A stretch of DNA of 64,000 nucleotides from Desulfobotulus pelophilus (GCF_026155325.1 NZ_JAPFPW010000002.1:248001-312000), one strand, 5' to 3'. Numbered from the stretch's first letter, positions 43,006-47,928 are shown. The notes: generated by a model not told the origin, from the sequence alone. Made by a program: numbers and translations.

Positions 43006-43774
43006 GATACTGCAAGCTATTTATGATCGTTATACGCACAGAGCCTTTGTGCATCCCGATCCTCTGGAAACACTCTATGCCTTTGACAGCCCGCTGGATA
43101 TGGAGGTGGCCGGTCTGGTAGCCGCCGTTCTTGCCTATGGCCGGGTGGAGCAGATTCTCAAATCTCTGGAAGGTTTTTTTGCCCTTTCAGGCCCCAGCCC
43201 TGCGGTCTGGTTACTGGATATGGACAGGTACGGTCTGGAGCAGGCTTTTATGAATTTCAGGCATCGTTTTGCCCATGGCCCTCAGATGACGGGATTTCTC
43301 TGCGGGGTTCAGACGGTATTGCGTCAGCATGGCAGCCTGAGAGCTGTCTTTGCCCTTGGAGACCGGGGAGGGGATATTGAAGAAGGGCTGCAGGGGTTTG
43401 TGGATGAAATCCTTCGCCATGCCCCCATGGATCCGGGTCATCTGCTCCCAAGGCCATCAAGGGGGAGTGCCTGCAAAAGGCTTCACCTTTTTCTGCGCTG
43501 GATGGTGAGAAAGGATGCTGTTGATACGGGACTCTGGGAAGACGTGGGGGCTCACAGACTGCTTGTGCCTCTGGATGTACATATGCACCGAATGGCCCTG
43601 CTTGCAGAAATGACGGACCGGAAATCAGGGGATATAAAAACCGCAAGGGAAATTACCCGGGGCTTTGCCCGTTTTACGCCTGAAGATCCGGTCCGCTATG
43701 ATTTTGCTCTGACCCGTGCGGGCATCCTGGAGAAGAAGGAGCCTGCCGCATTTCTCGCCGGGTTTATACCATGA
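42989..43774 (+). CDS. TIGR02757 (DUF2400) family protein
   Basis: 261 residues from MLFTREILQAIYDRY. Conserved family segments include DPLETLYAFDSPLDMEVAGL, VAAVLAYGRVEQI, RLHLFLRWMVRKDAVDTGLW and LLVPLDVHMHRMA. The pattern resembles HhH-type DNA glycosylases (LDVH.H in place of the catalytic loop), and the family is largely uncharacterised. I chose ATG 42989 (GAAGGA before it) rather than an upstream in-frame start, which lies inside the kinase gene. The C-terminus overlaps the convergent small gene by 11 bases. Confidence 0.9.
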   Translation: MLFTREILQAIYDRYTHRAFVHPDPLETLYAFDSPLDMEVAGLVAAVLAYGRVEQILKSLEGFFALSGPSPAVWLLDMDRYGLEQAFMNFRHRFAHGPQMTGFLCGVQTVLRQHGSLRAVFALGDRGGDIEEGLQGFVDEILRHAPMDPGHLLPRPSRGSACKRLHLFLRWMVRKDAVDTGLWEDVGAHRLLVPLDVHMHRMALLAEMTDRKSGDIKTAREITRGFARFTPEDPVRYDFALTRAGILEKKEPAAFLAGFIP

Positions 43775-44132
43775 TATCCACCTGCTGGCCCTGTTGGATG
43801 GAATGGCTGGCAGCCTGTGTGAATTCACGGATTACACTTTCCGGCTGCTGGTAGAGATTCTGCGCTCTTTCCGCAGGAGATGCCGTTGTCTGGGCTTCCT
43901 GCGCAGGTGCTGCAGCAGAAGGCGGAGTGGTGGATGATGTAACCGTTCCTTCGGGGCCGTATCCGGAGGTCATCATGGCCCGTGCTGTTTCAGAAGGTGT
44001 GAAAATAGCCGCATCCTGTACCGCCTGCTGCGGTATGAGTTCTTCTCCCTGATTATGGGGAGGGCGGGCCATTACCTGCTGTACGGGAGATACGTTGTAT
44101 GGGTTGATGTTGCCGGAAATGGGCTGAATCAT
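43764..44132 (-). CDS. Small Gln/Pro/Ala-rich protein, unknown
   Basis: 122 residues with a strong AAGGAGG ribosome site. The composition is biased to Gln, Ala, Pro, Thr and Ser, with few aromatic residues except near the N-terminus (MIQPISGNINPYNVSPVQQV) and a C-terminal stretch QNLYQQPESVIREF. It is probably unstructured; there is no signal peptide or membrane helix. It overlaps the TIGR02757 gene end by 11 bases. It is divergent from the peptidase/ATP-grasp operon 354 bases away, which raises the possibility that it is a substrate or regulator, without direct evidence. Confidence 0.65.
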   Translation of the reverse strand: MIQPISGNINPYNVSPVQQVMARPPHNQGEELIPQQAVQDAAIFTPSETARAMMTSGYGPEGTVTSSTTPPSAAAPAQEAQTTASPAERAQNLYQQPESVIREFTQAASHSIQQGQQVDIMV

Positions 44133-44486: not shown

Positions 44487-45239
44487 ATGACGTCCAGACT
44501 TCCCTTGGCCATTCTGGCTCAGCCCGATGATGAAAGCTGTGGTCCTACCTGCCTCCATGCCATTTACAGCTACTGGGAAAAGGAGTCTCTTTCTCTGGAT
44601 GAAGTGCTGGGGGAAGTGCTGCGTGTGGAAACCGGAGGAACCCTTGCCGTACATCTGGGCTCTCATGCCCTGAGACGAGGCTATCGGAGCATTCTTTATA
44701 CCAATGATCTGCAGATGTTTGATCCAACCTGGTTTCCGGTACCTGTGGGAAAACACAGGGATGTGGACCCGGTTTTTCTGACGGGTAAACTTCTCCGGCA
44801 GGTGGCCAATCGGAGAAGCCAGAAATTCCGGAGTGCAACGGAAGGTTATACCCGTTTTCTGGCATCCGGCGGGAAGATCCGTTTCCGGGATTTTACCCCC
44901 GATCTGATTCGAAAATATCTGGACAGAGGAATTCCTATTCTGACGGGGCTTTCAGCAACCTATCTGTACAACACCATGCGGGAGATACCGGAGTCCAATC
45001 AATCCGATGACCTCAAAGGACGTCCCTGCGGTCACTTTGTTGTGCTCAGAGGGTATGACCGAATTCGCAGAAAAGTTCTGATTGCCGACCCTTACGCCAG
45101 AAATCCCCGTTACAATGAACCGTACTATGCTGTGAACATGCGCCGCCTGATCCATGCGGTGCTTCTGGGTGTGCTCACATTTGACGCCAACCTTCTTGTC
45201 CTGATTCCGGAAAAAGAATCGGAGGTTTTGATTTCATGA
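44487..45239 (+). CDS. C39-like cysteine peptidase-fold protein
   Basis: 250 residues. The papain-like fold is shown by Gln11-to-Cys QPDDESCGPTCLHAIYSYW (Cys near 18), His in GHFVVLRGYD and Asp in LIADPYARN. C39 peptidases usually cleave double-glycine leaders at ABC exporters, but this protein has no ABC domain and is soluble, so it may act as a stand-alone peptidase, amidase or transferase. GGAGG precedes the ATG. It overlaps the ATP-grasp gene by four bases (ATGA). Confidence 0.9.
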   Translation: MTSRLPLAILAQPDDESCGPTCLHAIYSYWEKESLSLDEVLGEVLRVETGGTLAVHLGSHALRRGYRSILYTNDLQMFDPTWFPVPVGKHRDVDPVFLTGKLLRQVANRRSQKFRSATEGYTRFLASGGKIRFRDFTPDLIRKYLDRGIPILTGLSATYLYNTMREIPESNQSDDLKGRPCGHFVVLRGYDRIRRKVLIADPYARNPRYNEPYYAVNMRRLIHAVLLGVLTFDANLLVLIPEKESEVLIS

Positions 45240-46699
45240 ATGATATTATTGTGGTGGATATGCCCGCGCGTTGGCCTGTCTCCATATCCGGAGCTGAAGT
45301 GGTCGGTTCCCGGGATTACCTGATGGATGCCCGTTTTCTCACCATGAAGCGGGCCAGGGTGTTCAACCTCTGCCGTTCATACCGTTACCAGTCCACAGGT
45401 TACTATGTCTCCCTGCTGGCAGCAGCAAGGGGGCACAAGGCTTTTCCCACCATTGCCACGGTGCAGGATATTAAATCCATGCCCGTGGTGCGTCTTGTTA
45501 CGGAAGATCTGGACCGGATGATTCAGAAAAGTCTGGGCCACCTTCATGCGGAAGATTTTGAGCTGAGTATTTATTTCGGCTGCAATCTTGCCAAGCGCTA
45601 TGACAGAATCGCCATGGAAATTTTCAACCTTTTTCAATGCCCTCTGCTGCGGGTTCATTTTGTGAAAAAGGATGAAAAGTGGCAGCTGCGCACCATACGG
45701 ATGATTGGTGTCAGTGAGATTCCCGATGACCATTTTCCGGAGCTGGTGCGTTTTGCCGAAGCCTATCTTTCCGCTCCTAATTCCAGGCCGAAGAGGCCGG
45801 AGAAAAGGGGCTATGACCTGGCCATCCTCACGGATCCGGACGAAAAGATGCCGCCTTCCAGTCCGGCGACCCTGAAGCGGTTTATCCGGGCGGGGCAGCG
45901 GGCGGGTCTGAATGTCAGCCTGATTACACGCAATGATTATCACCGTATCGGTTTTTTTGATGCCTTGTTTATTCGGGAAACTACTTCCGTGAACCATCAC
46001 ACCTTCCGCTTTGCCCAGCGGGCGGAGGCGGAAGGTCTTGTGGTGATTGATGACCCCCTTTCCATTATTAAATGTACGAATAAGGTGTATTTGGCCGAGC
46101 TTTTGACCCATCATGGTATTGCCACGCCGGAAACCCGGATTCTTTCCCGGCAGTCCCTTGCAGAGGCGTCCCAAACGGGGCTTTGGCCACGTATTCTGAA
46201 ACAGCCGGACAGTGCTTTTTCCCAGGGTGTGGTGAAGGTGGAGGACAGGGATGCTTTTCTGAGGGAAGCGGAACGCTTTCTGGATCGTTCAGATCTGATT
46301 ATTTCTCAAGCGTTTACTCCCACAGAGTATGACTGGCGCATTGGTGTGTTGGGAGGGCAGCCCCTTTTTGCCTGTAAATATTTCATGGCCCGTAGCCATT
46401 GGCAGATCGTAAACTGGGCAAAAAGCGGAGACAGCCGCTTGGGAGATGCGGATACGCTGGCCCTGGGAGCTGTGCCTGACGTGGTTCTGAAAACTGCCAT
46501 TAAAGCGGCAAGACTGGTGGGCAGCGGTCTGTATGGTATTGACCTGAAACTCATCGGTAGAAAAGCCTACGTTATAGAGATTAATGATAATCCCAATATT
46601 GATGCGGGTGTTGAGGATGCTGTTTTAAAGGATGGTCTGTATGACCGGATCATGATGCATTTTTATGATGAGATCATGCGCAGAAAGGGCGGTAAATGA
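45236..46699 (+). CDS. RimK-like ATP-grasp ligase with RLAN N-terminal domain
   Basis: 487 residues. The N-terminal part (about 1-190, with YYVSLLAAARGHKAFPTI) matches the RimK-like ATP-grasp N-terminal (RLAN) domain. The ATP-grasp core follows, with substrate/ATP residues in KQPDSAFSQGVVKVED, GVLGGQPLFACKYFMA and the metal-binding VIEINDNPNIDAGVED. RimK-type enzymes join a carboxylate to an amine via acyl-phosphate, often adding Glu or other residues to a peptide. It overlaps both neighbours by four bases, so the three products are made together. Confidence 0.93.
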   Translation: MNDIIVVDMPARWPVSISGAEVVGSRDYLMDARFLTMKRARVFNLCRSYRYQSTGYYVSLLAAARGHKAFPTIATVQDIKSMPVVRLVTEDLDRMIQKSLGHLHAEDFELSIYFGCNLAKRYDRIAMEIFNLFQCPLLRVHFVKKDEKWQLRTIRMIGVSEIPDDHFPELVRFAEAYLSAPNSRPKRPEKRGYDLAILTDPDEKMPPSSPATLKRFIRAGQRAGLNVSLITRNDYHRIGFFDALFIRETTSVNHHTFRFAQRAEAEGLVVIDDPLSIIKCTNKVYLAELLTHHGIATPETRILSRQSLAEASQTGLWPRILKQPDSAFSQGVVKVEDRDAFLREAERFLDRSDLIISQAFTPTEYDWRIGVLGGQPLFACKYFMARSHWQIVNWAKSGDSRLGDADTLALGAVPDVVLKTAIKAARLVGSGLYGIDLKLIGRKAYVIEINDNPNIDAGVEDAVLKDGLYDRIMMHFYDEIMRRKGGK

Positions 46700-47928
46700 A
46701 GGCCTTGCATCTTTTTGAGGGGTACGGGATTGAAATTGAGCTGATGATTGTGGATGCTGCCACACTCACGGTGCGTGCTTTGGCAGAAACCCTGCTCCGG
46801 GAGGGAAACGGACCGGTAAGCAATGAGCGTTCCCTTGGTAGAGTGCGGATATCCAATGAGCTGGCTGCCCATGTGATAGAATTCAAAACTCCCGGCCCGG
46901 CTGCAGGGTTTACGGGTTTAACGGAAGATTTCAGGTCGGCCGTTGATGAGGTGAATCGCCTTTTGAAAGTCCATGGAGCAAGGCTTCTCGGTACGGGGAT
47001 GCATCCTTTCATGAACCCTTTTGAAGAGGCTGTCCTCTGGCCCCATGGACAAAAGGAGATTTACAATGCCTACCACCGTATTTTTGATTGCAGGGGACAC
47101 GGGTGGGTGAATCTGCAGAGTGTGCATCTGAACCTGCCCTTTTGCGGCGCGGATGAGTTTGGTCGTCTTCACGCCGCCATTCGATGCGTGCTGCCCCTGT
47201 TGCCCGGACTCTGTGCCAGTACGCCCATGGCCGATGGGCAGCTGACTCCCTATTGCGATACCCGCCTGGCTGTGTACAGAAAAAATCAGCAGAGAATCCC
47301 TGAAATAGCGGGCAGTATTATTCCTGAGGCGGTTTTTGACCCCCGGAGCTATGAAAGGGAGATTCTTCTACCCATGTACCATGCCATTGCTCCCATGGAT
47401 CCTGATGAGGTGCTCCGGGGAGAATGGCTGAATTCCAGAGGTGCCATCGCCCGTTTTGAGCGAAATGCCATTGAAATCCGTCTTGTGGATACCCAGGAGA
47501 ATGTGGAGGCGGATGTGGCTGTGATGGGTCTGGTCGCCGCAGTGGTACGGGGATTTGTTGAGGAAAGGCTGGCACCTCTGAATATTCAGAAGCAGGCCGG
47601 GACCCGGATGCTTGCCGATTGTCTGAATCAGGCCATCGTTGATGGGGAAAGTGCCCTGGTATCCGATCCCGGGCTCATTGCCCTGTATGGTCTGGACCGC
47701 CCGAAGAGGGCCGGTGATATCTGGAAAGCCTGGTATGACAGACTGCTGCCTCACTGTCCCGAGTTATTGCCTGTGGCTTCTTTTCTTGAAAAAAGGCTGG
47801 AGCAAGGAACGCTTTCCAGTCGTATCCGCCAGTCCCTGGGAGAGCATCCTTCGCCGGAAAGGGTGAGGGCCGTTTATGGCAAGCTTGCGGACTGCCTTGC
47901 TACAGGTCGTTTGTTTTGCGGCTTCTGA
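46696..47928 (+). CDS. GCS2-family carboxylate-amine ligase (YbdK-like)
   Basis: 410 residues. GYGIEIELMIVD is the metal/ATP-binding N-terminal motif of glutamate-cysteine ligase 2 relatives. Supporting features are HVIEFKTPGPAAGF, the HLNLPF strand, and SRGAIARFERNAIEIRLVDT near 270. Family chemistry: ATP-dependent amide bond from a carboxylate (often Glu) and an amine. In operon with an ATP-grasp ligase, it gives a second amide-forming activity of different fold. The start overlaps the ATP-grasp stop (ATGA). Confidence 0.92.
   Translation: MKALHLFEGYGIEIELMIVDAATLTVRALAETLLREGNGPVSNERSLGRVRISNELAAHVIEFKTPGPAAGFTGLTEDFRSAVDEVNRLLKVHGARLLGTGMHPFMNPFEEAVLWPHGQKEIYNAYHRIFDCRGHGWVNLQSVHLNLPFCGADEFGRLHAAIRCVLPLLPGLCASTPMADGQLTPYCDTRLAVYRKNQQRIPEIAGSIIPEAVFDPRSYEREILLPMYHAIAPMDPDEVLRGEWLNSRGAIARFERNAIEIRLVDTQENVEADVAVMGLVAAVVRGFVEERLAPLNIQKQAGTRMLADCLNQAIVDGESALVSDPGLIALYGLDRPKRAGDIWKAWYDRLLPHCPELLPVASFLEKRLEQGTLSSRIRQSLGEHPSPERVRAVYGKLADCLATGRLFCGF

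What the first reader, a model, noticed from the sequence alone, without database searches (positions are those of the whole stretch)
44487..47928. Coupled C39-like peptidase, RimK-like ATP-grasp and GCS2 ligase operon
Three genes overlap by four bases each (ATGA at 45236 and 46696), so they are made together. Two encode amide-bond-forming enzymes of unrelated folds and the third a papain-fold protein with intact Cys, His and Asp. I recall that comparative surveys of amidoligases noted such combinations, but I know of no settled product. A pathway that builds or edits a short peptide or peptide tag is a reasonable reading. This is my best candidate for an undescribed system.
Basis: partly seen in the sequence, partly recalled or inferred. 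Interest (0 to 1): 0.72.

Follow-up and report, generated by a model that had tools for sequence, protein, structure and literature searches.

The report
Peptide-ligase operon with interchangeable N-capping enzyme
A three-gene operon in a Desulfobotulus bacterium encodes two enzymes that should join amino acids and one papain-like enzyme; the same set recurs in several distant phyla, and an acetyltransferase takes the place of one ligase in related loci, which suggests the system makes a short peptide with a capped front end whose identity nobody has yet determined.

Summary
In detail: three genes at the stated coordinates, joined by ATGA overlaps. They encode a papain-fold C39-like protein with an intact Gln/Cys/His/Asp set, a RimK-like ATP-grasp ligase with an N-terminal RLAN domain (PF14401), and a GCS2-family carboxylate-amine ligase. 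The set is not chance. In 297 genomes of the phylum the operon-type GCS2 occurs only in RLAN genomes (11 of 14, against 0 of 283), and the same gene order recurs in Spirochaetota, Pseudomonadota (incl. Legionella), Ignavibacteriota and Bdellovibrionota. New here: RLAN loci come in two mutually exclusive forms. One is C39–RLAN–GCS2, usually followed by an N-formylglutamate-amidohydrolase homologue (20 of 29). The other is a GNAT acetyltransferase (often with a C39-like extension) beside or fused to RLAN (71 loci). None of 114 loci has both, and the state switched at least three times on the RLAN tree. Sister Desulfobotulus species lost C39 and GCS2 but keep RLAN under purifying selection. Best reading: RLAN is the core peptide ligase; GCS2 and GNAT are alternative amine-capping enzymes; C39 trims or transfers. 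The product is unknown. The family is a recognised but uncharacterised kind of amidoligase system; the 2009 survey could not be read.

The parts
44487..45239 (+). C39-like papain-fold cysteine peptidase/transferase, 250 aa, no ABC-transporter domains; active site Gln12, Cys18 (44538-44540), His183 (45033-45035), Asp201 (45087-45089)
   Evidence: Pfam PF13529/PF03412; invariant residues; AF2 model pLDDT 81, VIA Z about 16 to C39 leader peptidases, to phytochelatin synthase Alr0975 and to PeiR
45236..46699 (+). RLAN plus RimK-like ATP-grasp ligase, 487 aa; the constant core of the system
   Evidence: PF14401 1.5e-48, PF08443; AF2 model pLDDT 83.5, residues 193-481 VIA Z about 25 to ArgX/LysX/RimK; dN/dS about 0.06 where it stands alone
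45311..45733 (+). RLAN domain (residues 26-166), role unknown
   Evidence: PF14401 match range
45812..46681 (+). ATP-grasp catalytic part (residues 193-482); K322, E448, N450 and neighbours invariant
46696..47928 (+). GCS2-family carboxylate-amine ligase, 410 aa
   Evidence: PF04107 5.3e-27; E13/E15, H103-P104, H144 and IEIR 259-262 invariant in the operon family; nearest solved structure E. coli YbdK 1r8g
45236..45239 (+). ATGA stop/start overlap C39-RLAN
46696..46699 (+). ATGA stop/start overlap RLAN-GCS2

Best explanation
The operon makes a short, non-ribosomal, N-capped peptide. Inferred steps: (1) GCS2 forms an amide on the amino group of an amino acid or short peptide, by family precedent a gamma-glutamyl-type bond; in related loci a RimI-like GNAT does the equivalent capping with an acyl-CoA. 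(2) The RLAN/RimK-like ATP-grasp enzyme phosphorylates the free carboxylate of the capped unit and joins the amine of a further amino acid, as RimK, LysX and ArgX do; it is the core enzyme. (3) The C39-like papain-fold enzyme cleaves or transfers through an acyl-enzyme, trimming or rearranging the product. (4) In most relatives, though not in this genome, an N-formylglutamate-amidohydrolase homologue removes or recycles an N-acyl amino acid. Shown: families, intact catalytic residues, operon structure, co-inheritance, GCS2/GNAT replacement, independence of RLAN. Inferred: every reaction, the order of steps, and that the substrate is a small molecule.
For: Operon and families. Strict co-occurrence in the phylum sample. 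114 RLAN loci: 29 with GCS2, 71 with GNAT, 14 with neither, 0 with both. At least 3 switches on the RLAN tree, including GNAT fused directly to RLAN inside the GCS2-type clade. GNAT closest to RimI, an N-terminal amine acetyltransferase. FGase homologue downstream of GCS2 in 20 of 29, in 0 of 71 GNAT loci. C39 and the GNAT-fused DUF3335 align over the Cys and His/Asp motifs, hhalign E 9e-12. ATP-grasp part matches RimK/LysX/ArgX. RLAN alone is still selected, dN/dS about 0.06. No small ORF was found conserved across the GCS2-type loci.
Against: No substrate or product is known for any RLAN enzyme. ArgX, LysX and RimK, the nearest structures, act on protein C-termini, so a protein substrate fits as well. 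The GCS2 member falls far below the cut-offs of the characterised carboxylate-amine ligase models (59 against 176 bits), so gamma-glutamyl specificity is unproven. The main GCS2/GNAT split is one deep split plus a few switches, so exclusivity is not 114 independent observations. One switch (L043/L045) rests on a weakly matching GNAT neighbour. The small-ORF search was coarse.
Confidence: 0.5

Rival explanations
1. Protein modification: the RLAN enzyme adds amino acids to the C-terminus or a side chain of a protein, as RimK does to RpsF and LysX/ArgX to LysW; GCS2/GNAT modifies the added residues and the C39 enzyme removes the tag.
For: The nearest structures, ArgX, LysX and RimK, modify proteins. 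A ligase-protease pair resembles RimK/RimB (PMC12239564). RimI-like GNATs act on protein N-termini. RLAN kept alone suggests a self-sufficient modification.
Against: No conserved neighbouring substrate gene, though the target could be a housekeeping protein elsewhere. FGase homologues and GCS2 enzymes belong to families known from small molecules.
Confidence: 0.25
2. A glutathione/phytochelatin-like system: GCS2 makes a gamma-glutamyl dipeptide, the ATP-grasp enzyme adds a third residue, and the papain-fold enzyme acts like phytochelatin synthase; the GNAT form would make an N-acetyl counterpart, as mycothiol carries N-acetyl-cysteine.
For: Same three folds as GCL, glutathione synthetase and phytochelatin synthase. 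C39 model VIA Z 15.8 (159 aligned, 2.8 A) to Alr0975 with bound glutathione, tied with C39 leader peptidases.
Against: No match to a phytochelatin synthase Pfam model at E up to 1; GshA/GshB-type models far below cut-off. The fold tie shows only papain-clan membership; nothing points to cysteine as substrate.
Confidence: 0.12
3. A degradative or salvage operon: C39 and FGase break down imported or wall-derived gamma-glutamyl/N-acyl peptides, and the ligases re-attach residues for recycling.
For: FGase family is hydrolytic; the model resembles PeiR, an endoisopeptidase of pseudomurein.
Against: Two ATP-consuming ligases and an acetyltransferase alternative point to synthesis; no transporter or wall enzyme is conserved beside the genes.
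Confidence: 0.08

Closest known systems
RLAN/GNAT-DUF3335 amidoligase loci (PF14401, PF11814), cited to Iyer et al. 2009
   Same: Homologous RLAN/RimK-like ligase; papain-fold C39-like partner; predicted peptide synthesis or modification
   Different: GCS2, usually with an FGase homologue, replaces GNAT; the C39 protein is separate and only distantly related to DUF3335
NAGGN osmolyte pathway (asnO-ngg; PA3459-PA3461)
   Same: Logic: an acyl cap plus an ATP-dependent ligase make a capped dipeptide, with a peptidase gene beside (PMC8070244)
   Different: No match of the window ligase to TIGR03103 at E up to 1; no AsnO and no M42 peptidase in the operon; GCS2 instead of GNAT
RimK/RimB and LysX/ArgX
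   Same: ATP-grasp fold and carboxylate-amine ligation chemistry
   Different: Extra RLAN domain; about 20% identity; below the RimK-family cut-off; C39-like instead of retropepsin partner
Glutathione plus phytochelatin synthesis (GCL, glutathione synthetase, PCS)
   Same: GCS2-type GCL, ATP-grasp and papain-fold enzymes
   Different: None of the three window proteins meets those families' models
C39 leader peptidases of bacteriocin ABC transporters
   Same: Fold and active-site motif
   Different: Stand-alone 250-aa protein with about 110 residues more than the peptidase domain, no transporter and no precursor peptide found

Membership tests
RLAN-type RimK-like ligase (PF14401) | RLAN domain over the curated cut-off, followed by an ATP-grasp domain | tested here: met
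   164.7 bits against 25; RimK 24 against 21
GCS2 carboxylate-amine ligase superfamily (PF04107) | Pfam match over cut-off with the GxExE start and conserved His/Arg motifs | tested here: met
   95.4 bits against 21; invariant columns
YbdK-type carboxylate-amine ligase (TIGR02050) | score over the curated cut-off | tested here: not met
   59.2 bits against 176.4
RimK ribosomal S6 glutamate ligase | TIGR00768 / PRK10446 over cut-off | tested here: not met
   47.7 against 143.4; 19.2 against 331
Glutathione synthesis (GshA cyanobacterial type, GshB) | equivalog models over cut-off | tested here: not met
   27.5 against 249; 14.7 against 272
Phytochelatin synthase | match to a phytochelatin synthase Pfam model | tested here: not met
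   not among Pfam matches at E up to 1; fold similar only
C39 bacteriocin-processing peptidase | C39 domain over cut-off | tested here: met
   24.5 against 22
C39 bacteriocin-processing peptidase | fused to ABC transporter, double-glycine precursor beside it | tested here: not met
   single 250-aa domain; no transporter and no conserved small ORF
NAGGN system | Ngg (TIGR03103) GNAT/ATP-grasp protein | tested here: not met
   no TIGR03103 match of the window ligase at E up to 1
DUF3335 papain-like family (PF11814) | Pfam match over cut-off | tested here: not met
   no match for the window protein at E up to 1; distant profile relation, hhalign E 9e-12
Any of the above | enzymatic activity on the defining substrate | not testable with these tools
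   needs biochemistry

The most novel reading that the evidence does not exclude
A widespread, unreported class of capped short peptides in bacteria, in which the same core ligase works with interchangeable caps (gamma-glutamyl-type from GCS2, acyl from GNAT), with a papain-fold enzyme building or rearranging the chain.
Probability: 0.3. Interest if true: 0.75.

Novelty: new member of a known kind. Interest (0 to 1): 0.48.

Why it matters
RLAN ligases occur in 18% of sampled Pseudomonadota, 15% of Spirochaetota and 5% of the window's phylum, yet no reaction is assigned in any paper I could search. The GCS2/GNAT replacement gives a first concrete prediction, that the substrate has an amine that must be capped. 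The Desulfobotulus species pair, with and without C39 and GCS2, is a natural comparison for finding the product.

Tried and rejected
Full text of Iyer et al. 2009: not held. Defence system: no PADLOC match. RiPP-like precursor beside the operon: no small ORF conserved across GCS2-type loci in a BLAST of ORFs of 20-100 aa; the clusters seen come mostly from close relatives of the GNAT type or look like overlapping-frame noise. Other conserved neighbours: only FGase passed; the remaining clusters are at scattered positions and strands. Solved homologues: none for C39 by single sequence; profiles reach C39 peptidases and YbdK. RLAN domain fold: the structure search was filled by ATP-grasp hits (residues 191-484), so the RLAN fold is untested, not shown to be new. 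Sister species as an annotation gap: rejected, as tblastn found no C39 or GCS2 in the loci, a genome-wide GCS2 search found only a weak other family member, and the aligned DNA lacks both genes.

Full report
OBSERVATION. Pfam gives C39-like peptidase, RLAN plus RimK ATP-grasp, and GCS2, all over the curated cut-offs. The closest named relative is Desulfobotulus alkaliphilus (84% identity in the ligase), and the genome search places two genomes with such copies in the window's own genus, so the window is from a Desulfobotulus species. All three active sites look intact: Q12/C18/H183/D201 in the C39-like protein, the ATP-grasp lysines and the E-x-N metal site in the ligase, and GxExE, HP and the IEIR motif in GCS2.

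DISTRIBUTION. RLAN occurs in 14 of 297 genomes of the window's phylum, 62 of 349 of the phylum of a Legionella-bearing genome (Pseudomonadota) and 23 of 149 of the phylum of a Spirochaetia genome. In the same 297 genomes the operon-type GCS2 is found in 11, all of them RLAN genomes, with a gap from over 500 bits to under 40 bits for anything else. The operon-type C39 is found in 11, of which 10 carry RLAN. The three RLAN genomes without GCS2 (G022, G178, G206) are exactly those with a GNAT. The C39-RLAN-GCS2 order is also seen in Melioribacteraceae, Leptospiraceae, Rhodospirillaceae, Legionella and Oligoflexales contigs. Gaps between the genes are 30 bases or less in 26 of 27 (C39-RLAN) and 24 of 29 (RLAN-GCS2) loci.

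TWO EXCLUSIVE FORMS. I pulled 114 RLAN loci and annotated them with profiles built here. 29 have GCS2 (27 of them also C39), 71 have a GNAT, 14 have neither, and none has both. In 46 of the 71 the GNAT carries a C-terminal extension of over 150 residues; the three such proteins scanned match DUF3335, a papain-like family. In 22 it stands without that extension, and in 3 it is fused to RLAN. A published classification of papain-like proteins notes that DUF3335 is often fused to GNAT domains, citing Iyer et al. 2009 (PMC10318531). A careful tree of 68 sequences divides the two forms with 100/100 support, but needs at least three changes of state: the GNAT-RLAN fusions and the L043/L045 pair lie among GCS2-type sequences. 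The fusion case is the firmer one; the GNAT beside L043/L045 matches only weakly and could be a chance neighbour. After thinning to 76 loci (27 GCS2, 41 GNAT) the naive probability of no overlap is 8e-14, but the loci are related, so the number of switches is the fairer measure.

FOURTH GENE. The only other conserved neighbour is an FGase-family protein (N-formylglutamate amidohydrolase), downstream of GCS2 in 20 of 29 GCS2-type loci and in none of the GNAT loci. The window genome has no FGase at all. A relative without it in the operon (G011) carries an operon-type copy elsewhere (L154), and a spirochaete with only C39-RLAN together (G348) has the operon-type GCS2 elsewhere (L151, E 9e-157).

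CORE ENZYME. In two sister Desulfobotulus species RLAN sits in the same place, beside the DUF2400 gene on one side and the response-regulator and type II/IV secretion ATPase genes on the other, but C39 and GCS2 are gone and no operon-type GCS2 exists elsewhere in those genomes. Outside the genus all three window genes have their best match in the same locus (L022), so loss in the sisters is likelier than gain in the window lineage. Between the two sisters the lone RLAN gene has dN 0.024 and dS 0.39. The ligase is thus under selection without its partners, which look like tailoring enzymes.

STRUCTURES. The C39 model (pLDDT 81) matches C39 leader peptidases (PCAT1, ComA), phytochelatin synthase Alr0975 and pseudomurein endoisopeptidase PeiR at tied Z of about 16. 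This confirms the papain clan but does not choose between hydrolysis and transfer. The ligase model (pLDDT 83.5) matches ArgX, LysX and RimK at Z about 25 over residues 193-481. These enzymes join an amino acid to the carboxylate of a peptide or protein. The RLAN part was not tested by the search.

MECHANISM. GCS2 and GNAT share little except that both acylate an amine, one with ATP and a carboxylate, the other with acyl-CoA (family knowledge). Their replacement beside the same ligase therefore suggests the ligase works on, or delivers, a molecule whose amino group is capped. With a ligase that extends at the carboxylate, the simplest product is a short N-capped peptide, by the logic of glutathione or of NAGGN, where Ngg acetylates glutamine and joins a second one (PMC8070244). 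The papain-fold enzyme would trim or transpeptidate, and FGase would remove an N-acyl amino acid. The main rival is modification of a protein, since the nearest ligases act on proteins. None of these reactions is shown.

NOVELTY. RLAN and DUF3335 are curated families, and the 2009 survey is cited for linked ligases of the ATP-grasp, COOH-NH2-ligase and GNAT kinds (PMC4431377). I could not read it. My memory that Pfam's RLAN entry mentions papain-like and GNAT partners is a lead only. Open-text searches found no experimental work on RLAN. I therefore file this as a new member of a known, uncharacterised kind. The strict GCS2/GNAT exclusivity, the FGase partner and the species pair are the added information.

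Noticed in passing
L163:3-3901 (G190:C85): The only operon-type C39 found without RLAN in the phylum sample lies upstream of a TetR-like gene, an AdoMet-decarboxylase homologue, a GNAT of the Acetyltransf_6 kind and a different ATP-grasp ligase; C39 may have been recruited to another ligase pair.
   Followed up: partly
L037:8001-9461, L020:7759-9297: Desulfobotulus sister species keep RLAN alone at the syntenic place with dN/dS about 0.06 after losing C39 and GCS2.
   Followed up: yes
L155:1594-3102 (window genome, contig 1): A second, very different GCS2-like protein (502 aa) overlapping a membrane-protein gene; a weak GCS2 match is also present in both sister species.
   Followed up: partly
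L066/L071, L070/L073, L072/L069 (G423, G419, G507): Three genomes carry two RLAN copies, one beside a long GNAT with C-terminal extension and one beside a short GNAT alone.
   Followed up: no
L036:7181-8691, L134:5080-6613: RLAN genes split into two frames; may be assembly errors or real breaks.
   Followed up: no
window 43764-44132 (-): 122-aa Pro/Gln-rich protein without a family match, conserved in the genus beside the operon; not among the neighbours conserved at other RLAN loci.
   Followed up: no
L133:7453-8433, L131:4102-5088: In one group of spirochaetes RLAN is followed by a polysaccharide-deacetylase-like gene instead of GCS2 or GNAT.
   Followed up: partly
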